Assembly (NCBI GenBank): GCA_900169235.1
Contig: FWCC01000358.1
Coordinates: forward strand, 1-36,848
DNA from: Zarea fungicola
Lineage: Eukaryota > Ascomycota > Sordariomycetes > Hypocreales > Cordycipitaceae
Length of the DNA stretch: 36,848 bases
Direction: 5' to 3'
Made by a program: the position numbers and the translations under genes. The notes under the pieces are model-generated. The model was not told where the DNA came from. It saw only the letters and a program-made list of their open reading frames with translations, and did not search any database. Below, piece by piece: positions 1 to 34,905 of this stretch. Position 1 is the stretch's first letter. Every line of letters starts with the position of its first letter.

Positions 1-800
1 TATATTATTTATAATATAGTTTAAAGTTAAGTCTTAAAGTTAAAAAATAAATCTTTTTTTATTCTCTTTAAAAATTATATATACTTAGCTTATACTTTAA
101 TTTCTTAAATACCTTTAATTTTACTTTATTATAATATAAAGTATTAGCTAAACTTTAATTAGAGTTTTTAAACTTTTTATATTTTAAGTTATTTAAAAAG
201 ATTAAAAAAAAGTATTAAATTTTAAGCTTTTTTTTTTAATATTAAGAACTTTAATTTTAAAAAACTTTAATATAAATTCTATAGATAATAATACTAGTCT
301 TATATTAAAAAAGATTTTTATTTTATTTTTAAGTCTTATAGTTAAAAAGCTATAGATTTAAAGAAGATTTAATATAGATTTAATTTTTAAGGTTTATAAC
401 TTAAATACTATAAGGCCTAAATTTCTATATATTATAAGATATTTAATTTTAGTAAGACTCTCTATTTAAATATCTATATTATAAGTCTTAGCTATTTTAA
501 GCCTAATATTAAGGCGCTAGAGGGCTTAGAATAGAAAAAGTGGGGCAAATGCGTGACTTGCTTGTCTGCGCGGCTCGCTTATTAACCACGTTATAGCTTA
601 TTAGTTAAATAATATAAGATATTAAAATATTAAGGATTTATACCAAAATACTAAGAAATCCTTAATATTTTATTTTTATTTTTTAAAATATTTTTAGAAT
701 TTTATAGAATTAGTTATAAGCTTCTTAAATTTTTTATAGTCTAGTTTTATAGTTAATTATATACTATACTATGTTTTTTTAGTATTAAGCTAAAGGTGGT
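1..800. repeat. AT-rich, RIP-like degraded repeat block
   Basis: This stretch consists almost entirely of A and T, rich in TA steps and short runs such as TTTAAA, with no open reading frame of note. Composition changes abruptly near 540-600 (a GC-richer patch) and normalises after about 790. In ascomycetes this texture usually marks transposons mutated by repeat-induced point mutation; that is inference, since no element can be recognised any more. From 800 to 1691 the composition is ordinary, but I see no gene. Confidence 0.7.
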
Positions 801-1691
801 GCTTTTATAGGGGGCTCAAAATCGGGTTTTTGGTGTAAAAAGTGACCAGGTAGGGGGTGGTGGCCGGGCAGGGGGTGGTTGACGTTAACTCAACTTGCAA
901 TGCGGACAGTAGGTTTTAGTTGGTGCTGGTATCACTACCCTAGACCCTGCGCGCGACCGTAACGAGTATGGTACTCGCACTACAGTTATCAGCTATAGTT
1001 GTCTGTCTAATTAATACTTGAATAAGTATTAATTCCAATCTTTTGCTAGTTGGCGTAGCAGTATAGACAGTTGTTACAGTGACTCTACCTTTCCTGTTCC
1101 TATCCCGTTATTCTTCCTCTAGACTAAATAGTTTCCAATCTATAAATGATTAAAGATACTGGGTTTGCTACCATTTTCTTACAATGCGTTTTTTTTATTG
1201 TTGTTCTTTTCGCGGCTAGTCTAGCCTAGTCCGGATCATGTCAAAATTGCCATGGAAAACTCTGTGTAACCTGCAACGAGCTGACGAAAGTCTGCATTCT
1301 GCTACAACTTCTCAAACTGACATATAGAGTATACTGTCAAAAGTTCCTTTAGCTTCGTGTTCTCATCCTCTTCATAGCAAAATCGTAGCAGATGAATTAC
1401 ATCATCCACCTGTTCAGCATGCAGTTGAAATCTGCACAGTATTCGGACCAGTCTCTCTGCTGCGAACAGGTAGGCTAGAGAGAGATCTCAAGCTGTTGTC
1501 CTAAATTCATACGACGGGTACATGTAATGCAGCTCACATATGCAATAAGTCCACCATCCGCATCCTTTCAATATCTGAGCATCATATGCGGCGAGAAGTG
1601 CAATTGCCATGAAAATGGTGGGATGCATCTCACAACGGCGATAGGAGCACAGGCCATTGGGATCTCGAGTCGTAATAGTAGCTGCTCACCT

Positions 1692-9504: not shown

Positions 9505-11318
9505 TCAGGGTAGAGCCATCACTTCACGAGCCTCTAAAACCTGCATATAAGCCACTATAGAATGGTAAGTTAAGACGAGCGGGCTGGCGTGTGGGCTGAC
9601 ATGTGGCTTGCGGAGGAAAATACCCACCTGCTAATCTCCACCTTCCACCATATGTCCTGAGCGAATCCTGCAGGATGTTAAATCCGCTGTTATGCTCGGG
9701 GCTACCGGATTCCCGCATCATTCCGATGTGTATTACACCGGCTTGGTAGCTTGTGTATAAGCCCCAAGGTGAAACCCGCTTCAAATTACACGTAATTTCT
9801 GGGAGTTTCTCACAGAGCGTTGTCGCCACCAGAGTAGCTACTTCGGCATGCTTTGTCCCCAAGATGGGATAGCAAGCCGAATCATGTGGGATGGAATCTC
9901 TGGATGCAGAGCTTGGACATTCGTCGGCTTCATGTAGTATCAGAAGCGCACTAAAAAAAATCGGTGAGACATTGGAAAACTCAGAACTATTAAAAGGAGA
10001 GAATAAGGGAAGGAATACCCAAGACAAATGGCCAGCGGATCGCAAGCTGGAAGCTGTGAGGCCTCAGCCGCACTAATAAGAGAATATATAGTTTGGCTTA
10101 GTTGCTTTGATCTTGAATGGTAGTGTTTGGTAGTAATTGGGTCATTTGAGACATGCTCAAGTACCAAGCCGAGCAATCGAGCAGATTGTGCAACAAGTGC
10201 AAATCTGCTCATATTGTGTCTTGAAGGCTGCGAAATAGTGCTGAAGTGGGTCGATTTGATTTCCTATTCATCATTCAGCTTCAATGCAAAGATCAGAGTC
10301 GTATGCGTTGAGCGTACACCGTTGTCCCACGCTTCCTCACTTGTTGGCAGGATCTGACCCGAACAAGGCTCCTCGATGACGAATCGGCGTCCGCGGCAGC
10401 CGATGCTCACGAGCCTGTTGTTGCGGTAAATAAGATGCGCATCATTCTAGATCTGGGGCTGCAAAATAAAAGGAGGTTAGGGGACACTTGAAACGTACCG
10501 ATCCATTATCATGATAGCCCACCAAACCCTTCGTGCCTCTTCCTGCTCGATTAAAGTAACAAGCCCAGTTACACGAAACCTGAGATTGCCGTTATCATTG
10601 ATACCTAATATATCTGCGTATTTTGCGCAAACTGCAATGGTCGAAAATGCCGCCGGGAAGATGGCATGCCCAATTTCGTACAGCGATAGAAGGACCAAGG
10701 CTTGTAAAACTTGTATCGACAAAACTCCAGTAGCATCGAGCTCCACGAAAAGTTCCTTCGCAGTATAGTAAGTCAAAGTTAGTGGAGTATTTATGTTGTC
10801 TTCTGGCATGGTCATTATTAATCTCATTGTGAGAAGCAATAGCGCAAGTTCTGGGCTTGGTGGCAATGACTGCAACTGGTAGTCATAAAAGCGCCTTTTC
10901 GATATAATTGGTGTCCAGTAAGAACCTGATTCGAAGAATTCTGCGGCTAGTAGCCGTATATCGGATACGCTTCCCAACTGCTCCAGAATGTAGATCGGTG
11001 TAGTACCAGGCGCGCTGCTCTTGCCAATGTCCGCAATGCGAGAATCGAGAAAAAGCATGCGATTGATGTCCAGTAGCTGTGGGCCAGGCGGCCACCCCTT
11101 GTCAACTTGTAGTGCTTCAATGACATGGCTGGCTGCGCATAACTGCTTCGAAAGCGAATAATCACATTTTCTGTTGTGCCTGCAGAATGTCAACCAACTT
11201 ACTCTTGCAGTCACATCACAACCCTTACGTACCGAGAGCATTGTGAACAACTCGGAAGCTCCTTGCTGCATTTCCGTTTCCGTAACCTGCAATTCTCGCA
11301 GGCTTGCGCCGCCAACAT
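9505..11318 (-). CDS. Zn2Cys6 transcription factor (TF-A), six exons
   Basis: Nuclear DNA-binding regulator. Exons 11318-11233, 11179-10499, 10414-10318, 10263-10019, 9950-9628 and 9554-9505 sum to 1,482 nt (493 aa). The zinc cluster starts almost at once: Cys7, Cys10, Cys17, Cys24, Cys27 and Cys34, with the first intron (11180-11232) inside the last loop. The middle region contains LFLDSRI, PIISKRRFY, RRVWWAIMIMDR, GCRGRRF, ILPTSEEAWD and MSRFALVAQSARLLG, motifs of the fungal-specific factor domain. The C-terminus ends on VLEAREVM. The ATG at 11318 is the only in-frame start after an upstream stop. It is co-linear with TF-C. A near-palindrome CCGCAACTTGCGG lies about 380 bp upstream (11696-11708). 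It plausibly regulates the neighbouring genes. Confidence 0.9.
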
Positions 11319-13653
11319 GATCGCCGACGGTGGAAGGTGGTTCCGTGGGTTCGACGAGGGAGAGAACTACGAGGCGGACGGCATGGCCGCAACCTGCGGG
11401 CGACACCCCATCGCGCGACCCCGAGACAAACGGCCCACAATGGTGGCCATGGTAAAAAGCTTGCAGCCGACCGCCGGTAACCGGATTTTCTTTGGGGCGA
11501 GGAAATCATGGCAATCTCCGAGTCATTCGAAAGCCAGGCCAAATGAAGTATCGGGCAGATTCACTACACGTTGCAGCACCCACCACTTCCACTTCGTTGT
11601 GCGCAACTAATCCGAATTAGAACAAGTGCGTGGGCTAGTTAGTCGCTGCGACTGGGGAGTAGCTCCGAGTCATTGCAGTCGCGGTCGCCACTGGGCCGCA
11701 ACTTGCGGTCGCAATAATTGACTAGGACGCACTGCCTCAGATGAGTGGGGAGATTCGCACCCCCAAGCCAAAGTCGCCGCCAGTCGCTGGGGGTGGATAC
11801 ATTCGCAGTGGATAGGTAGTGGACCAGAGTCGGCGTACTGGTTAAGTTTCTTTTAAAGTCCTGAGGTCTCGGCCGTGCGTTACCACTGAGCCGAGGCCCT
11901 CCTCCCACGCTAGGACACGCTGAACGACACGCAGGACTAGTGTATGAGCATTCTGTTTAAAGTAAGCGGAAGGGAGTAAATGAGTCAGCCCAGAGCCTGG
12001 ACTTTGAAGTGATGTAGCATTGAAGATTAATACAATACGACCGCTGAAATAATGCTAGGCTAGGGCTTTGTAGATACCTCCATAGCCAATTGAAGTCCGA
12101 GAAGCTAATTGATGATCCTGGCTACTAAACGGTGGGGTTCTTACCATCGTAACTTGGTGGAACTCGCCTTGAAGCTTAGTAAAGACTCTATTGGCGTCTG
12201 TTAGTTCAATAATAGAAAAAAAACGTTTCATCAGTAGACCGACCTAATAAGTTCTAGTTAAGAAACTAGTTGAATTAGAAAACTATTATTTTCTGTAGTC
12301 TAAAGTGGTCTTTCCCCTAGTCACTCAAGACTTTTCCACTGCTTCAAACTGCTTTCGATCCATGACCGTTCCAAAAGTTTTATTATACAGAGCCTGCTGC
12401 TTGCCACTACATCTACACCCGGGTTATACAGCATAAAATTGGAATCCATTAGGTAAAGATAAACAAATGCTGCGCAATGGGTGCATGTCTTGTTGAGCAT
12501 CAATGTCCTCACCACGCCAGGGCCCTATTCCAATCAACAATGGCCGTCTCATAATACCTGCTTCATTGTGATTCGGGCAGTGACGGTGTATATAGAGATA
12601 TCTATGCTCTCGTTTGAGACCAAGCTAAAACTTAGAGCAAAGTTTAAAATATGATGGCAGAGTACTGCCCAATCTTACTGAGTGGAAAAGAACTTAACAG
12701 CCCGTGCATTGTGACTGCTTGTGCTCGTACCAACACCAGCAGTAGCTTAAAAGATGTCCGTCCTGCGCAAGCAACTGCCGAGTGTATTTCCCACTGACTT
12801 ATCACTACAAAGAAATTAAAAAAAGTAAGATATGTCTGAGAATGTAGATTGCCAACCACAAAGCAACCACCTCGGACGCCGTCCCTGACGTTAGCAGCCT
12901 CTTGGTGACAGCCAGCGTTTCGATCTGAGCTTATTTTACTTTTTTATGAGTAGCCTGAACTTTGCATAGTGGGCAACGGTGACACGCTAGTTCCAGCTGA
13001 CGGTAGGGGGTCAGTGCTAGATTCAGCTGCTCGTTGAATAGGAAAGCCGCTCAATGAAGAGTCTTAGCTATTCGTCCTTTTTGCTCTATTAAGTCTATGT
13101 CTACTTACACCGCAAAGTTTCCACTGGCCGCAAACTCTTTGTAAGTCATTGGTTATAAGTGTTGGAGCAGTCGCTAGCAACAGCAGCTAAGGTGTCATGG
13201 ACATGTCCTCTATCACGCTACTGGTAGCTGCAACAGCCAGCCCCAAGGGGTAAGGTAGGGTTTAAATAGAACCCCGTGTCTACTCATCCTTCCCAGCGAA
13301 AATTAAGCGTCCATTTGCGCACCTCATCGTCGGGCTTAGGGCAAAGTCTACGGCGGGGATGCACAGTAGTGGCTTGTGGATCTGGCCTGTGAGGAGGACA
13401 ATTAAACTATCGGCGGTACGTGTCGAACCAACGGCTTACACCCGACGGGTTTGACGCAGTTGGCCGTTGAAAGAACTAGTTGGTTGTGGGTTTCGTGGTC
13501 GAGAATGTCGCTGACGAGCTAGCCGGATTGCAGGCTCCGAACATGGTGCTGAGCTGAGTAAGATGCCAGAAGGGCTGACCGCGCTTTATACTATATAAGT
13601 ATGATAATGCTAGACATACTGCCATAATCCTTCGATGGCAGGAATCCACTAAC
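11319..13653. other. Long intergenic region between divergent regulators
   Basis: About 2.3 kb between the divergently transcribed TF-A and TF-B. It includes a moderately GC-rich stretch near 11640-11940 with many GTCGC/CCGCAA words and a hairpin (CTCGGC/GCCGAG near 11867-11895). I see no convincing gene; open frames at 11639-11908, 12321-12515 and 12644-12859 (all minus) show no domain. It probably holds the promoters of both regulators. Confidence 0.5.
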
Positions 13654-16999: not shown

Positions 17000-17036
17000 C
17001 CCCCCCCCCCCCCCCCCCNNCCCCCCCCCCCCCCCC
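17000..17036. other. Poly-C run with two undetermined bases (NN at 17019-17020)
   Basis: A run of 18-19 C, NN, then 16 C. It marks an assembly or sequencing limit in a homopolymer, so the true length is unknown. The flanks (GTGTAA and TCGGCAGAG) show no telomere-type unit. Confidence 0.9.
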
Positions 17037-18630: not shown

Positions 18631-19326
18631 ACCCAATACCACAATGGCCCTCTATATGGTTATTGGTTCAAAGACCCGCATCACATTTAGTTTTAAGGAT
18701 CAACCTACATGTCTCTTAATTATTAAACAAGTAATAAATTCAAGCTAGTTCGCTGTGCCACGTTGTGCTGAAGCGGAAGTCTGCTGGAGTTTAGTTAATT
18801 CCGAAGCCAAGAAGGCCACTAGTGATTACGCTTGTCGCAGTTCAGCAGGTCAAGTAGCTCCTTTACTAAAATGAATCTGCACAGGAGCCACAAAACGCCT
18901 ACAGCTGAATCCTGGCTGCTTTACTCCGTACAGCCCACTAGTTAAGCCTTCTCTAGATGGATTCGATTCTCCACTTGCTAGTTGAGTTGTGAAGACTAGG
19001 ACTCACTAGGTTACTGTAGGAGGTTGTCCCAAAGCCCAACCCGGTTGGTACGGGAGATGGTGTGGAGTTGAGGGCTTGGGGTAGTCGGCAGATAAGTCAT
19101 GCGAGTATGTAATCAAACAGATATGCACCGCTTGCGGAGGGCTTCCGCAAGCTCTTCCGCAAGTTCTTCCGCAAATGCCTCCGCAAACTGCTTCCGCAAC
19201 TGCCTCCACCAAGGCCCAAAACGCGTCCGCAACTATAGCTGAACTACAACTGCGCCAAAATACTTTGTACGTCGGTTGGCTCTGCGGCTCTGCGGCTCTT
19301 AACAGTATTCGCACTGCCGTCTAAGA
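18631..19326. other. TF-C upstream region
   Basis: Non-coding stretch before TF-C. Its last 200 bp hold the CCGCAA repeat array (19129-19215) and, at 19276-19298, a short GGCTCTGC direct repeat of about 2.5 units. No gene is seen. Confidence 0.5.
19129..19215. repeat. 12-bp tandem array of TTCCGCAA units with leading inverted copy
   Basis: About five degenerate 12-bp units of the form (C/T)TCCGCAANNN(C) run from 19143 to about 19215. Just before them GCTTGCGGA (19130-19138) is the reverse complement of TCCGCAAGC (19144-19152). The array ends about 110 bp upstream of the TF-C start, a promoter position. It is either a minisatellite or a cluster of factor binding sites. Confidence 0.75.
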
Positions 19327-21158
19327 ATGGACAGTCCAACTTCCAGTTCCACTCTTTCTAAGCAAGCCTGTCTTGCTTGCAAGGCGGGAAAGAGGAAATG
19401 CTCTAAAGAACTGAGTGGCTGCCGCTTGTGCCAAAAGTACGTAGCGCAGCAAGTAAGACGACGTGGGAGGTGGTGCAACATTAACTGTTTGCTTAGAAAA
19501 AAATGGATTTGTGATTATGGACAGCTTCAGAGTCGTGCTAATGTGGCTGGAGCTTCGGCGTCCAATGCAAACCAGCTTCAGCGGTGCGCCCAACCTTTGG
19601 AATTACAACGGGTTCTGTTCCTTGACTCCAGAATTATCCAGCACACTAGGGTTGGATTTTCCGGCCATACGCCTGGATATGTTGTCCAGCTTATAGGCAG
19701 CGATTCGGATATACGAGCATTTTCGTCTTGCTTCTTTGATACCGTCCAGAATTGGATGCCTATTATCTCAAAAAAGCGATTCTATAATCAGTACATCTCG
19801 TCGGTTTCGCGCCCAGAATTTGCTCTACTACTTCTATGCGTAAAGCTTACCACTGAAGTCCCGACAGACGACCCTCAAACTATGACTTACATAGCTGCAA
19901 AGCAATTTTATCTGGAGGTAGAGACTGCAGGAATCCTTTCCATACACGCGCTACAGGCAGGTGTGCTACTCGCCCTATATGAGCTAGCTCATGGTATACA
20001 TCCATCTGCGTATTTGTCTATTGGCGCATGCGCGATGTATTCGTATGCACTGGGCATCAACTTGGATGCTGCAGCGCCGATAAACCGGCCACTTACCCGG
20101 ATTGAGAAGGAAGAAACCCGCAGAGTGTGGTGGGCGGTTTTTATTCTAGATCGGTTCGACTCCTTAATCCCCCCAGCCATGTAATTCCGAACCGTCTTGC
20201 CTGAACAGAATGCAGTTAGACAGCTGGTTCGGACTTACGGGACCTTCTTGTATAGAGAGATGGGCTAATGCGACTCCAGATTGGCAGGCCTCGGCTGTAG
20301 AGGAAGACGATTTATTACCGATATACCCCCAGTACAGTATCTTCTACCAGCAGATGACGAAGCGTGGGATGAGGGAGTATGTGTATGCAATCCGTTGTTC
20401 ATGAACTCGGCTCCTGATGCTTCCACAGACTATCGAGCTAGTAGACTCTCAACCCGTCGCACACCCAACGCTTGATCACATGAGCAGATTTGCCTTGGTT
20501 GTCCAGGCTGCGAGATTGCTAGGACATGTGTTTGACCACGTTTCGAAGCCTGATGGCAATACGCTCCCATTTGAGGAAACAATGCAGTTGGATCGCACGA
20601 TCCGCTCGCTGATAAATGCGTGTCATCGTACAAGCATGCCAGCATGTGCGGCAGTTGCCATCTGCCATAGGTAATCTTTTTTTTCTTTCACCATTAATGC
20701 CCCGATTGATGCCTGCTTACATTCTGGCATATCACAGCGCTTTGATGGCCTTGCACGATTCGTGCGGCTTGTCAACTTCTTCGTCGACTCCTGGCGTGAC
20801 AAGCGATTCTACTAGCAGCTTCAATGATGAGCCAGGAGCTGTGCGAACCGCAGCGGAAGTAGCTGAAATCATGCAGGTCAAATTGCCTGAAATGGCAAGC
20901 AACATAGAACGGATGTCTCCATGGGGTGCGTTTCCAGCATATGAGGCGAGTATCATATATTTGCGATTGAGTCGGTACTCTCATGCTTTAGGTGCAGTCG
21001 AAGCGCTGGACGCTTTGCGAATGTCATTGAAGACCTTGAATATGAGGTGGAAACTAGCAGGTCAGTTTCCGGTGAGGCAACTAAAAAAACCTTGGCTTAC
21101 TATCATAGGCGCATATCTTCAAATATTGGAGGCGAGGGAAGTTATGAATATGCCTTAG
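19327..21158 (+). CDS. Zn2Cys6 transcription factor (TF-C), inverted paralogue of TF-A
   Basis: Nuclear regulator. Exons 19327-19436, 19497-20153, 20280-20376, 20429-20670, 20738-21060 and 21109-21158 give 1,479 nt, 492 aa. Zinc cluster: Cys15, Cys18, Cys25, Cys32, Cys35 and Cys42, interrupted by the first intron at the same place as in TF-A. Shared motifs include LFLDSRI, PIISKKRFY, RRVWWAVFILDR, GCRGRRF, DDEAWDEG, MSRFALVVQAARLLG and AYLQILEAREVM. Exons 3, 5 and 6 are exactly as long as in TF-A (97, 323, 50 nt). The second intron needs a poor GTTCGA donor at 20154; a better GTAATT at 20181 is also in frame and would add nine residues. The upstream repeat array may be regulatory. Confidence 0.9.
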
Positions 21159-22975: not shown

Positions 22976-23772
22976 ATGGACGCAGATTTTATTATTTTTG
23001 GTGCTGGTCCAGCAGGCTGCAGTACAGCCGCTCACTGGCCGCAACACCTACACATCCCAGAGTCATTTTGTTTGAGGCCGGAACCGAAAAAGTCGATTCT
23101 ACTTTGCGCATGTCTTTCGGAGATGTCAAAATCTCGGCATTCCGGAAGCTGTGTACTCGTATAAGAGCAAACCACAGGCGAATCTCGACAACCGCAAGTT
23201 GGACCTGCCACGGGGGAATGGACAAGGAGGTCATCACTGATCAACTTTTGGGCATGGACTAAAGACCGTCTTGATGAATGGGATGCAATTGCAACGCTTA
23301 AATGTGACGAGGACTGGAACTGGGAAAACGCCCAGCGCCTATGGAAAGGGTTGGGGGCTGTGACGACAAGGGTGCTAGGTAACCGCTTGAAAACCAGGAA
23401 GGTTAAGCAATGCAACACCATAGTTGTGCATCTCTGGCATCCAATATATAGTTGCCTTCTAGGTCCCTCACAGAAGCGTACCACTGCGGAGTGCCGGACG
23501 GGATGAAGAAGTACTTATCCCCGAAACCAAACAGTCATGGCTCAGCCGGACCTTTAAACATTGGCCATCTGGAGACACAGGATCAGCATTTGGTTGATTT
23601 ACTGGATATATGGGAGTCTTCTGGACCTACCATCGACACTGATATTGGCTTTGGAAGCATTTTAGGCATTTATCTCTGTCCAGATACGGAGCATGCTGGA
23701 ATCCACTCCACTTCATCAGATCTGGTTATGTCGGCACCGACTAACCTGCAAGTCATTCAAGACGTTAGATAG
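22976..23772 (+). pseudogene. GMC oxidoreductase, truncated and frameshifted
   Basis: Remains of an FAD-dependent glucose-methanol-choline oxidoreductase. The N-terminal FAD loop is readable as MDADFIIFGAGPAGCS. The next strand, VILFEAGTEK, is in another frame; then KPQANLDNRKLDLPRG and, after a further shift, SSLINFWAWTKDRLDEWDAI. The 23452-23772 stretch has HGSAGPLNIG and GIHSTSSDLVMSAPTNLQV, typical of the central part of the family. At least three frame changes occur in 500 bp. The C-terminal substrate domain with the catalytic His is missing, so only about half of a family protein of roughly 560-600 aa remains. No plausible intron set restores it. Confidence 0.8.
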
Positions 23773-24211
23773 ATGCTTCTGACACCAATCAACTTGAAGA
23801 CCATCTGTCTACCTGGTCAGTACTCTACATGCCTCGACACTCTTTGCACCCTTTGCACCCTTTACACCCTTTAAACACAATGCACACAACGCACACAATA
23901 ATTCCTCCAATATGCCTTCTTTATAAGTGCGGTAACGAGCTAGCTATTTCTAGCCGTAGTATATGAGAACTATTTAAGAAAATAATGAATTCTGATAAGG
24001 TGGTACTAAACAAAAGTAAACGCCGAGTTTGGCTTCGTAATATAGTTGAAAGGGGGTAAGAGACGACCCGGACTAATTACGACGTGACATGCTTAATCCA
24101 GGCTCTATTTTAATGAAGGGTTTTCCCGCGTAGCTGTAGAACAACAGATCCCAACGCATCAAGTTTCACGACGTTTTTAAGTCAAAGATCCAAAATTATA
24201 TCTCTAACAAA
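23773..24211. other. Intergenic region with short TTTGCACCC direct repeats
   Basis: Around 23839-23875 the word TTTGCACCC/TTTACACCC is repeated about three times, followed by ACACAA(T/C)GC repeats. Otherwise ordinary sequence leading to the peptide gene at 24212. Confidence 0.5.
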
Positions 24212-24484
24212 ATGCGATTCCACAGTACCTTTATTCTGGCAAATATCGCTCTAGCACTTGCTGCGCCTCAGCCTGTCACTCAGGGTACATTCCATGGCGC
24301 TCACATTCATCAGACATGACTGATATAAGCTTTGCCACACTTGGACAAGAACAGCTCCGACTACATTGCCTATGGCGCCAAGCGTGCTGAGAATGCTGTG
24401 GCAACCCCGGACTATATTGCATAGGGCGCGAATCTTGCTGAAAACGCCGCTGCAAACCCCGACTACATTGCCTATGGTGCCTAA
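24212..24484 (+). CDS. Repeat-containing secreted peptide (candidate RiPP precursor), interrupted by a stop
   Basis: Exon 24212-24284 encodes a signal peptide (MRFHSTFILANIALALAAP). A 45-bp intron (24285-24329; GTACAT donor, CTGAT branch-like site, AAG acceptor) leads to exon 24330-24424. The frame then meets TAG at 24422-24424, giving 55 aa. The same frame beyond the TAG runs to TAA at 24482-24484. Three 51-nt tandem units start at 24359, 24410 and 24461. Each opens with DYIA, followed by YGA in units 1 and 3; unit 2 has the TAG where units 1 and 3 have TAT. Unit 1 has Lys-Arg after the motif, a Kex2-type site; unit 2 has Asn-Leu. This build (signal peptide, repeated core, dibasic site) matches dikaritin-type precursors of UstYa pathways. 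The stop suggests decay or a shortened product. Confidence 0.7.
24359..24481 (+). repeat. 51-nt coding tandem repeat, 2.4 units
   Basis: Units begin exactly 51 nt apart (24359, 24410, 24461). The 17-codon period encodes DYIAYGA plus a spacer beginning K/N-R/L-AENA. Substitutions are scattered, including TAT to TAG in unit 2. Codon-sized periodicity shows it arose as a coding repeat. Confidence 0.85.
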
Positions 24485-26285
24485 GAGCCACATTTATTTG
24501 CGCTGCCATTTAATCAACAAGAGGATTTTTATATCAGGCAGTGCCGCAGTTTGTGCTCAAGATCAGTCTTTCTGGCCACTGGGTCTGCTTTTGTGAAACA
24601 GCGCCAACTGAGCCGCTGTGGTGTGGTAGTTTCCATTCAGTGTCGTTCTTGAGTTCAATAGGGAAGGCATGCAGATTTCAGTTAGCCTACAGAAATATAC
24701 TCATTAGCAGGGGACAGCTTTGTAGGAACGACTGACAATATGGTGCTTCTTTCATGTGAAACGTAATATCCTTGAGTTATAAGCGAATTACGTAAGAAAG
24801 TTAGCGGATAAGTACAGATTGTGATGCGTAGTTACTGCTCAAGGGCACGCAGACAGCCTCCAAAGTAAATCCGAAACATCATCACCAGCGAGGCGGCTAC
24901 GCAGTTAACCAGTAGTGCTATAGGGATGCATGTTTCTATACGGATTTGGAATTATTTGATTATTCATGTTACTTCAATATAGGAAACGCGAGATGAGGGA
25001 ACTGACTGGGCCGATGCTTGCACCACACTGGCCGCTACCTATGCTAACACGCAACGAGGTAATAGAAAGCTGAACCATTCCGTTCCCGTATATTCACATA
25101 TATTTGACAACCTAGGCATAGGGTAAGCTACTTTTTAATAAGAGAAGATATTCTTGAATCTCAAGCTGCAGACACTATGCAGAGTAAGACGAGGCTGTTC
25201 ATGCACATAGATAACTATTGAGGTACCCCTTTAGGCTACTTTAATATACCTTACTAAGAGCCCTTTCACCTTACTCATAACACGCCCCTCTACGCGTAAT
25301 TTCTACAATATATAATAAAAGCCTGCACTGCATAGCCATGTAAACAAGTCATGCAGTAAATCAATATCTCGTACACGTTAGAGGGCGTACACGTTAAAGG
25401 GCCGCATACGGCTTGCCTGAGTAGCGAGGGACGCACACTTGATTCACTTGTCATACCACCGCAACATGTGTAAAGTTACTTGTGCAGGAGCAGTTAATCA
25501 CTGACATTCTGCCTGTGCCTGGGGTCCCGAGGCACAAGTTTTATTTCACAAGGGACGAACCCTTCCATTGCTCGTAAACTCTAACCTCACTGGCTTACTA
25601 ACTAATTGGTATCGCACCATTCATTGCTTACCTGATCTGAGCAAACTCGAGGTGTGGTTCACCGTAGTGGTAATCTCCTTCTCAAAGAGTGATCGCCGCC
25701 AGCTGGTGTCACCTACAATCAACAATCAACTAATGATTACAGGAATTCCTGCCCTGCAATAAGCTTGACAAGTTTAACCGCTCAAAATCAAGATGGGATA
25801 CCAACAGATTAATGTATATTTGAAAATGAATCATTTAGTGCATATCCGCTAGTGAGTGTTTTCGCAATTCACTAGACGAATCTAAGGGGCATCTAAAAGT
25901 AAGAGAAGAAAACTTGTAATAGAAAGGGAGCTCGAGTTCGGTGCAGTTGGTCTGGCCTGTTGGATATACTGGTTTGGTAAGTCATGGCGGAACCGAGAGC
26001 GCGTCAGCATCTGGCTCAATTTGTGCATAGATGCGTTACGCACATCCACAAGTATTCGGGGTGGCAGGGTCCATATCCTACGTTCATATTATTACTCACA
26101 ATGCAAAAGGGTAAAAAAAGAAAGATAAGTGATATGACTTACTGGAATGCACATGCATGTATAAGCTGTTGGACCAGTGCGTGGGCAGATCATATCCGAA
26201 CAATCGTCATTGGTCTGACAAACCCGATTTACATTGCAACGCTATCCTGATGTTAGCCTTATTTGGTTAAAATAGCATGTTGCTA
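24485..26285. other. Intergenic region, nothing recognised
   Basis: Short open frames on both strands (for example 25568-25762 and 25984-26250 plus) have no recognisable motif. No tRNA, repeat or regulatory pattern stands out, apart from a possible far exon of the minus-strand peptide gene at 26229-26246. Confidence 0.4.
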
Positions 26286-26463: not shown

Positions 26464-28215
26464 TGCTTAAATAGCTGACAATGGCTGTGCCTAGCTATTG
26501 TTATAGTCAGTCAGTAATAATCAGAAGGAAAGTTCGTATCTATATGTATTAATTCGGCGCTTGTAACGTATATAGTAATAATGCAGCCTCGAGATAATTC
26601 TTATGTATTGTAACTATATACTAAGACTATGCAATTACTCTGAACTTGCCGCGGTACATTCGGGTACACGTACCCGAAACTTTTTCACCAGGCATTTCAA
26701 CAGTCGGGTGCTTGTTCCTGAGGATTGTTCAACCCTTGCGAAACACACTGACCTGAAAGTCTCGACTGCTCCGGCCTTCTAGTTATGGGTTATTCAGGGC
26801 GTTAGTTTACCCCATAAACCGGGGGCATCTGCTTACGTGTCAAACATAGAGATACGTCCAGGAAGGAGTACGATCGACTCAACTATCTGATGCAGTGAGA
26901 CTACGCATAAGCATAGGCTACTTTCTGCTGTAAGAAAAAGTCAACTTTCTTGTTGAATGTTTGCTAAGTAGAACTTTTTGCTCAAGAAGCGGTCGAAATA
27001 CTGCGTTGATAGCACTGAGGGATATCTATTGCCTGGCGATGTGCTGGTTGGTCTTAACGCTTCAAGCGGCCCATGATTGATATTATGCTACGAGTGAAGC
27101 GACATAAATAATACATGAGCACCTTTAAATTATCTGGCAAATGCGATTGTAAATAATGCTCTCAGTTTCATTTCAGCTTGAAATGTCTCACCCTGGCTCC
27201 CAGGTCGGGCCGAGTAATATAATGGACTATATTAAATAACTAGATCCTCTTTTTTTTAAAAAAGTTTTTTTATTATTAGGGCTTATATTAGCTTAGCTCA
27301 GTATATTTTATTAATAATACTTAGGTATTATTTAGGGTATATTATAGTTTTAAGTAATGCCTTAAATGCTTAATTTTAGGTCTTTTTTTAAAGCTTTAAT
27401 AGCTAAGAGAATATTTACTTTATTGAATAAAGAAACTATTTTCTATTATTAAGTTATCAAGGTTACAAGGTATTTAATTAGAAAAAAGGCAAAGTAGCCT
27501 ACTTGTCCATATAGCCTGCTTATGTGTGAACTATATTATATATTAATAGTAAGTATAAATTGTAGTTAGTGGATATTCCTTTATAAATTATTCCTCCTAT
27601 CGAAGATCAAGGATAGAGTTTTAATTTATTATACCTTTATAATTCTATATTACACTGTGCACTAATTGCTGCTCTTGCCAAATGAAAGCTTGATCAACTC
27701 TTGCAACGTTACATATCTAGTCTGGGTACTGGTACCCGCCAATTACCGATGCATACGCAACTAATCTCTCCTGTGATACAAATTTCACTTTCCATGACGA
27801 TACCGGCATCCATAGCGTCACTACAACCGTTGCGTCATGTTGGCTTATCCGTGGCAAACGCCGACTATAATTGGATTGTGGTAGACGAACCGCAAGCGGT
27901 GTACTTCCAGGTACCAACACCCGAAGTGCGCATGCTTCGCGGAATGGAGACCTATAGACACCAGTCACTTTCGTGAGATAGCTGGCAAGCCAGAGTGTGC
28001 GAGATTGGCATCACAAGCCTGAAGCCATATTGGTATGGCTGTCAACCCTTTCCTATCGAGGTATGTCCAGGCAGCGGTCCAGGCAAGTTCTGCTAAGCCT
28101 TCAAAAATCCTCTTTATCCTCGCGCTGCTGCCATGAAAATTTGGCGGCTCATTGGATGCTCGTCATACCCGACCTTACACCATCGATATCCAGCTGACAT
28201 TTGCAGATATTCATC
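26464..28215. other. Intergenic region with AT-rich block
   Basis: Contains palindrome copies at 26661-26676, 27723-27738 and 27908-27923. An AT-rich, RIP-like block covers about 27225-27660 (TTTTTTTTAAAAAAG near 27251, many TA steps). A plus-strand frame at 27701-27976 has no known domain. CGAAGTGCGCATGCTTCG near 27922-27939 is a perfect-arm hairpin. Confidence 0.5.
26661..26676. promoter_or_regulatory. Palindrome CGGGTACACGTACCCG
   Basis: The cleanest copy of the dispersed CGG-N10-CCG site, with 7-bp arms around AC. It lies 198 bp upstream of the minus-strand peptide gene start (26463), a plausible promoter position. Factor binding is inference. Confidence 0.55.
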
Positions 28216-34197: not shown

Positions 34198-34905
34198 CTA
34201 GAATACCGCTGCAAAATTGCTTGGCAGATCGCATGTCGTGAAGATATTGTAGAATCCCGCCAGAGCGATATGCGTTGAGCTTGCGTTTGGCTGACGCTGT
34301 GCGGAAAGTGCGGTTGAACAGTGGATTGTGTGATGATGATAATCGCCAACGTGGCTGTCTATTGGGCGCCCAAGCAACACTGCCCGATGCAGTTTCCGCC
34401 ACGTGTAGGCATAATGCAGGTCGTGGTATTCCCTGGTAACAAAGAGAGGATTTGGTCCTCCTGTTTGTCTGATAAACCCTTCAGAAAGTTCGTGCTCGCC
34501 GTCTGGATCCGAATACCACCGCCAATCTGCTGGCTGAAGGAAATCCTTTTCCAACTCTTCATCGTGGCAGTCGGGGTGTACCCAAGCTCGGGATATGAAG
34601 TCCATCACACAACCATTTTGCCTAGCAGCCTCGGAAGATTGCCCGCAGCCTCTCGGTGAGATATAGCCCGGAAAAGCAAATTCGTGGAGGGCAATGTAGA
34701 CGGACAGTCCTAGGATACATGTAATAACTGCCAATTTCGCGGATATTAATACTAAACAGCCATGTCGTATGCCAAAAAAGGCCTTTTCTGGGCCCACTTG
34801 GCTGATTCCAACAGCTTCAATAGGGCCTTCTACATTGCTGTCGGCGTCAAGGTCAGCCAGGCGGTCCGCGAGTAGGCTGTATTTGAGCCAGCTCATTGTC
34901 CGCAT
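34198..34905 (-). CDS. UstYa-like (DUF3328) oxidase, single TM, 235 aa
   Basis: Single-exon gene. A cytosolic N-terminus of about 50 residues precedes one membrane helix (about 51-75, LVLISAKLAVITCILGLSVY) and a lumenal domain. That domain has CGQSSEAARQNGC (87-99), DWRWYSDPDGEHELSE, and two histidine motifs 31 residues apart: HDLHY (161-165) and HTIHC (192-196), with WRKLHRAVLLGRPIDS between. UstYa-family proteins are TM-anchored oxidases with paired HxxHC motifs; they cyclise or oxidise RiPP core peptides in ustiloxin/phomopsin-type pathways. Here the first motif has Tyr for Cys. Family assignment rests on the TM plus paired motifs and spacing. It is divergent from the peptide gene at 35721, as a precursor/enzyme pair would be. 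The frame is intact. Confidence 0.75.
   Translation of the reverse strand: MRTMSWLKYSLLADRLADLDADSNVEGPIEAVGISQVGPEKAFFGIRHGCLVLISAKLAVITCILGLSVYIALHEFAFPGYISPRGCGQSSEAARQNGCVMDFISRAWVHPDCHDEELEKDFLQPADWRWYSDPDGEHELSEGFIRQTGGPNPLFVTREYHDLHYAYTWRKLHRAVLLGRPIDSHVGDYHHHTIHCSTALSAQRQPNASSTHIALAGFYNIFTTCDLPSNFAAVF

What the first reader, a model, noticed from the sequence alone, without database searches (positions are those of the whole stretch)
24212..24484. Multi-core secreted peptide gene with an internal stop: possible new RiPP precursor
A signal-peptide ORF spliced to 51-nt repeats each carrying a DYIA(Y)GA core, with Lys-Arg after the first core, is the architecture of kexin-processed fungal RiPP precursors. 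The core does not match a product I know. The TAG in unit 2 sits where its sister units have TAT, so the gene is either freshly broken or yields a shorter precursor with one full core.
Basis: partly seen in the sequence, partly recalled or inferred. Interest (0 to 1): 0.88.

Follow-up and report, generated by a model that had tools for sequence, protein, structure and literature searches.

The report
Broken copy of fungal peptide precursor
This short stretch looks like a recently broken, three-unit copy of a fungal gene for a small secreted peptide; an intact ten-unit sister sits elsewhere in the same genome next to a gene related to peptide-cyclising enzymes, so it is one more member of a known class and not a new kind of system.

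Summary
In detail: a signal-peptide-like exon, an intron and three 51-nt units reading DYIAYGA, with Lys-Arg after unit 1 and TAG in unit 2. The same 43-Mb fungal genome holds one clear relative (contig C163): same exon 1, a 60-nt intron at the same place and ten intact units (YIAYGA in 10 of 10, KR in 9 of 9). A UstYa (PF11807) gene lies divergently about 1.05 kb away. So the family is a kexin-processed repeat precursor of the UstYa (dikaritin) type, and the window holds its damaged paralogue. A CACCC-repeat pattern occurs at two places in the genome, 365 and 360 bp upstream of these two genes. DYIAYGA and YIAYGA were in no held paper's main text. Comparison with other fungi was unavailable. 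New member of a known kind; the window copy is most likely a young pseudogene, though a one-core product is not excluded.

The parts
23843..23885 (+). CACCC-repeat element; 23847-23869 matches the scanned pattern and starts 365 bp before the ATG
   Evidence: 23843-23872, 93% over 30 nt; 23837-23885, 80% over 49 nt to the C163 upstream region; pattern drawn from the two copies: 2 places in 43 Mb, 0 for the reversed control; best shared stretch of the two upstream regions; 0 of 200 base shuffles reach it
24212..24284 (+). exon 1, signal-peptide-like (24 codons + 1 nt)
   Evidence: aligned with C163 exon 1 (25 codons + 1 nt). Signal peptide judged by eye
24345..24358 (+). pre-core residues (DKNSS; DKNSP in the paralogue), first codon split by the intron
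24359..24409 (+). unit 1, DYIAYGA-KR-AENAVATP: the one complete core with a Kex2 site
24410..24460 (+). unit 2, in-frame TAG at 24422-24424 and Kex2 Lys-Arg replaced by Asn-Leu
24461..24484 (+). unit 3, DYIAYGA then stop TAA, the same ending as the paralogue
34198..34905 (-). divergent UstYa-like ORF (hydrophobic segment by eye, HDLHY + HTIHC); link to the precursor not shown
   Evidence: phmmer E 3.2e-11, 8.2e-11 and 2.6e-9 (against a small local ORF set) with three ORFs beside UstYa genes on C230 (one) and C182 (two); Pfam finds nothing; weak profile link to UstYa (probability 13%, E 0.0023)

Best explanation
The window gene is a paralogue of an intact kexin-processed repeat precursor (C163:54747-55379). 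In the intact copy the signal peptide sends the chain into the secretory pathway, Kex2 cuts after each Lys-Arg to give 17-residue pieces carrying YIAYGA, and the neighbouring membrane oxidase UstYa most likely cross-links the core through its tyrosines, as proposed for AprY in asperipin-2a. The window copy duplicated or diverged long ago, was kept under selection on its protein for most of that time, and has recently decayed: splice acceptor lost, stop in core 2, Kex2 site 2 lost. Shown: sequence, homology, lesions, shared upstream element, UstYa neighbour of the paralogue. Inferred: secretion, cleavage, cyclisation, and loss of function in the window copy.
For: One other clear relative in the genome by pattern, DNA and protein search. 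Same exon 1, same intron position and homologous intron length, same last unit ending in a stop directly after the core. YIAYGA in 10 of 10 and KR in 9 of 9 in C163. UstYa PF11807 matches at C163 52821-52985 and 53180-53599, divergent, motifs HNLHC and HMVHC (the latter across a junction read by eye). About 24 of 37 coding differences silent against 24% expected; dN/dS 0.12 with best-matching units, 0.07-0.18 over all pairings. CACCC pattern at 2 places genome-wide, 365 and 360 bp before the two ATGs.
Against: No transcript or peptide data. dN/dS rests on 69 codons, and units within an array can homogenise. Against the diverged units 8 and 9 the part past the stop shows dN 0.21 with dS saturated. 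The window copy keeps an in-frame alternative acceptor, one full core with KR and the upstream element, so it may still make something. No tyrosinase match on C163 or C442, so the ring chemistry is not that of ustiloxin and is guessed. The lesions could in part be assembly errors; reads were not seen.
Confidence: 0.78

Rival explanations
1. The window copy is a live single-core precursor: the alternative AG at 24328-24329 is used, the chain ends in core 2, and Kex2 frees one DYIAYGA that the UstYa at C163 (or the UstYa-like protein at 34198) modifies in trans.
For: Of the four AGs tested only this one keeps the frame; core 1 and its KR are intact; the upstream element is kept at nearly the same distance.
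Against: The AG is 5 nt past the branch-point A, which from general knowledge (recalled) is unusually close; sequence beyond the stop is still like units 2, 4 and 6 of the paralogue, as expected of a recent accident and not of a settled short form; the UstYa-like ORF lacks the Cys of its first HxxHC.
Confidence: 0.14
2. The family yields linear secreted peptides (signal or pheromone-like KEPs) without ring formation; UstYa is a chance neighbour.
For: No tyrosinase match on C163, and no methyltransferase or peptidase among 20 C163 ORFs that I picked for Pfam (other ORFs were not tested). Only 22% of KEP genes in a survey had DUF3328 neighbours (PMC7329392, abstract).
Against: UstYa is the divergent neighbour with about 1.05 kb between start codons and keeps both HxxHC motifs; the core holds two Tyr, and Tyr-bearing repeats are commoner beside DUF3328 genes (65.6% against 38.2%, PMC7329392, discussion). 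For asperipin-2a the UstYa homologue AprY is essential and was proposed to do the macrocyclisations (PMC6514808, passages).
Confidence: 0.17
3. The stop, acceptor loss and KR loss are sequencing or assembly errors in a small 36.8-kb contig, and the gene is whole.
For: The contig has a poly-C run with an undetermined base near 17000.
Against: Three separate substitution-type lesions within about 95 bases, no indels there; the UstYa-like ORF lacks a motif Cys and the GMC gene of the same contig looks frame-broken by eye.
Confidence: 0.05

Closest known systems
Kex2-processed repeat proteins (KEPs) with DUF3328/UstYa neighbours (PMC7329392)
   Same: Signal-peptide-like start, near-identical units between Lys-Arg sites, UstYa gene next door: all true of the C163 paralogue
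   Different: The window copy has one Kex2 site, a stop in unit 2 and no PF11807 match on its contig; core YIAYGA is not the YXIX type of ustiloxin, phomopsin and POI2
Asperipin-2a (aprA/aprY; PMC6514808, passages)
   Same: Several Tyr in the core, one UstYa-type gene beside the precursor, no tyrosinase in the cluster
   Different: Core FYYTGY, not YIAYGA; the asperipin cluster has a reductase and a transporter, whereas here an aldo-keto reductase and a sugar transporter lie some 14-20 kb from UstYa on C163 with no shown link
Ustiloxin and phomopsin (dikaritins)
   Same: Repeat precursor with Kex2 sites, UstYa family
   Different: No tyrosinase match on C163 or C442; no Y-X-I core

Membership tests
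KEP (PMC7329392 section 13: signal peptide, at least 3 repeats of 8+ aa between Kex2 sites), window copy | three or more repeats bounded by Kex2 sites | tested here: not met
   one KR, stop in unit 2
KEP, C163 paralogue | three or more repeats bounded by Kex2 sites | tested here: met
   10 units, KR in 9 of 9 junctions
KEP, both copies | signal peptide | tested here: inconclusive
   hydrophobic N-terminus with an A-x-A-like site by eye; no predictor available
Dikaritin (UstYa RiPP), C163 paralogue | UstYa/DUF3328 protein with two HxxHC motifs next to the precursor | tested here: met
   PF11807 2.3e-14 and 5.9e-16 on its two ORFs; HNLHC and, across a junction read by eye, HMVHC
Dikaritin, window copy | UstYa/DUF3328 protein nearby | tested here: inconclusive
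   no PF11807 match on C442; a UstYa-like ORF 9.7 kb away with only one whole motif
Dikaritin | modified, cross-linked peptide product | not testable with these tools
   needs mass spectrometry
Ustiloxin/phomopsin subgroup | tyrosinase in the cluster and Y-X-I core | tested here: not met
   0 of 9 tyrosinase matches lie on C163 or C442 (best candidates only are scored); core is Y-I-A-Y

The most novel reading that the evidence does not exclude
A precursor family split over two contigs, with one ten-core copy beside its UstYa and one orphan copy that still makes a single core in trans, both switched by an upstream CACCC element found nowhere else in the genome by the pattern used; YIAYGA would then be the seed of an undescribed Tyr-cross-linked peptide.
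Probability: 0.12. Interest if true: 0.55.

Novelty: new member of a known kind. Interest (0 to 1): 0.42.

Why it matters
It names an intact, testable UstYa-type locus with a core that I found in no held paper, and gives a side-by-side view of a repeat precursor intact and in decay in one genome. It also gives a candidate promoter element that could tie the precursor to its regulation.

Tried and rejected
Protein database search for relatives in other fungi: switched off, so distribution and species stay unknown. Whole-genome search with the exon-2 protein gave a third, weak hit on C241 (E 0.002, 20% identity); the 365-residue open frame there is low-complexity and lies antisense to a longer FG-repeat-like frame, rejected. 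RIP as the cause of decay: considered; the stop is not a C-to-T or G-to-A change against the sister units and the region is 44-45% GC, so not supported for that lesion. Segmental duplication of the whole locus: 30 kb of C163 (40400-70299) share with the window only the gene and the upstream element at the thresholds used. Papers: DYIAYGA and YIAYGA in 0 papers; the shorter IAYGA or YIAYG in 7 papers and one linker string in 1, unrelated by title (listings only). PMC7329392 was seen in its abstract, sections 6 (part 1 of 2), 9 and 13 and found passages; PMC12048977, PMC6339444, PMC6514808 and PMC7099791 as found passages only; others as search listings. Supplementary tables and figures, where repeat motifs are mostly shown, could not be read, so the core may already be listed there. 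Structure prediction was not run: tool rules limit the input and a lone sequence would probably give a poor model. Rfam (gathering threshold) and tRNA scans of the window: nothing.

Full report
What is there. The array scores 139 in Tandem Repeats Finder; 0 of 500 dinucleotide shuffles gave an array of 50 or more, the best being 43, and the real stretch scored 139 in the same set-up.

The intact sister. A DNA pattern for the core hit the window three times and one other place in the 43.1-Mb genome, C163. DNA and protein searches found the same two loci; a third protein hit (C241, E 0.002) is a low-complexity antisense frame and was dropped. The C163 gene (54747-55379) has the same exon 1 (one codon longer), a 60-nt intron at the same place, then ten units on a 17-residue period. 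YIAYGA is kept in 10 of 10 units, KR in 9 of 9 junctions, and the linker varies, so the core lies within [D/E]YIAYGA. The last unit ends in a stop right after the core in both genes.

Its partner. PF11807 (UstYa) gave 55 exon-level matches in the genome, two of them at C163 52821-52985 and 53180-53599. The gene is divergent from the precursor, with about 1.05 kb between the start codons as I read them; it shows a hydrophobic segment (by eye), HNLHC, and HMVHC across an intron junction that I read by eye. None of 9 tyrosinase matches lies on C163 or C442. Of 20 C163 ORFs that I picked for Pfam, those with hits beyond UstYa were beta-lactamase-like, a weak JmjN (below its cut-off) and an aminotransferase on one side; GH3, GFO/IDH/MocA, a Zn-cluster regulator, a sugar transporter, APH-like, GNAT and aldo-keto reductase on the other; six had no hit. 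This recalls the small asperipin-2a cluster, where one UstYa homologue is essential and was proposed to do the macrocyclisations (PMC6514808, passages).

What is broken in the window copy. (1) The intron stretch homologous to the 60-nt intron keeps GT and a CTRAY branch sequence at intron position 36, as in C163, but its last bases are TGG. (2) TAG in core 2. (3) Asn-Leu in place of Lys-Arg after core 2. As a KEP (at least three repeats between Kex2 sites; PMC7329392 section 13) the window copy fails and the C163 copy passes.

How recent. Over 69 codons, with unit pairs chosen by best match and stop columns left out, about 24 of 37 differences (rounded from 23.7 and 13.3) are silent where 24% would be expected (binomial p 1.8e-7, treating differences as independent); dS 0.75, dN 0.09, ratio 0.12. 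Over all 729 unit pairings the ratio is 0.07 to 0.18, median 0.10; exon 1 alone gives dN 0.18 and dS 0.85, exon 1 with the pre-core residues 0.16 and 1.18. Downstream of the stop three pairings were tried: dN 0.05 against dS 0.36 (units 6 and 4), 0.05 against 0.81 (unit 2), and 0.21 with dS saturated against the diverged units 8 and 9. If C163 took no amino-acid changes, the window copy can have been free of constraint for at most about twice the ratio, a quarter to roughly a third of its history (inference). Homogenisation inside arrays weakens this.

A shared upstream element. The best alignment between the two upstream regions is the CACCC repeat (23843 onwards), which 0 of 200 base shuffles reach; the region nearer the gene is at chance level (22 of 200 shuffles reach it) (single-base shuffles, a mild control). 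The pattern CACCCTNTNCACCCTNTNCACCC, drawn from the two copies, occurs at two places in the genome, starting 365 and 360 bp before the two start codons, with 0 for the reversed control. With dS near 0.75 this suggests constraint, perhaps a regulator's site (inference).

The rest of the window. A UstYa-like ORF at 34198-34905 (-) is unseen by Pfam but matches three ORFs beside UstYa genes on C230 and C182 (phmmer 3e-11 to 3e-9 against a local ORF set). Its first HxxHC reads HDLHY where the three others have a Cys, while the second is whole. The profile link to UstYa proper is weak (probability 13%, E 0.0023), though the His/Cys motifs fall in register. Upstream of the precursor lies a GMC oxidoreductase remnant that looks frame-broken by eye (no Pfam hit on its three pieces; weak PDB match E 0.023; the FAD motif is recalled). 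So the contig looks in part like a decaying secondary-metabolism region (inference).

Verdict. Family: new member of a known kind, a UstYa-linked Kex2-processed precursor with a core found in no held paper's main text. This copy: most likely a young pseudogene.

Noticed in passing
G000 C230 about 153435-154139 (L046:436-1140 -): Another Kex2 repeat precursor, units TVKQNGDILYNN(G/P)AGWGKR, between two UstYa genes and near a UstYa-like gene.
   Followed up: partly
G000 C439 about 48906-49412 (L049:3907-4413 -): Repeat precursor with NGNPDILYF..(V/A)GWGKR units beside UstYa genes.
   Followed up: partly
G000 C167 (L012:134-553 -) and C157 (L054:1743-2045 -): Two more repeat precursors near UstYa: EFLNILDKKDEDDKWSTTGNAERNVKKR, and HKY(S/N)VSAKEADA..EKR, the latter with a tyrosinase match at the contig end.
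   Followed up: partly
window 23358-23472: A 115-bp dispersed repeat inside the broken GMC gene, matched at 7 other genome places at 73-86% identity; 6 of the 7 were aligned and have unrelated flanks. MITE-like or intron-like; not settled.
   Followed up: partly
window 27228-27570: About 310-bp AT-rich dispersed repeat with 21 non-self matches in the genome, 15 of them starting at the same base; 4 copies aligned.
   Followed up: partly
window 24738-25020: Stretch just downstream of the precursor matches C412:781-1062 at 78%.
   Followed up: no
window 10477-11505 (-) and 19303-20184 (+): Two Fungal_trans regulators that look alike by eye.
   Followed up: no
window 17000-17036: Poly-C run with an undetermined base in the ORF across it, probably an assembly join.
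   Followed up: no
window 1-1000: AT-rich contig end, 24% GC against 36-55% in the other 35 one-kb bins.
   Followed up: no
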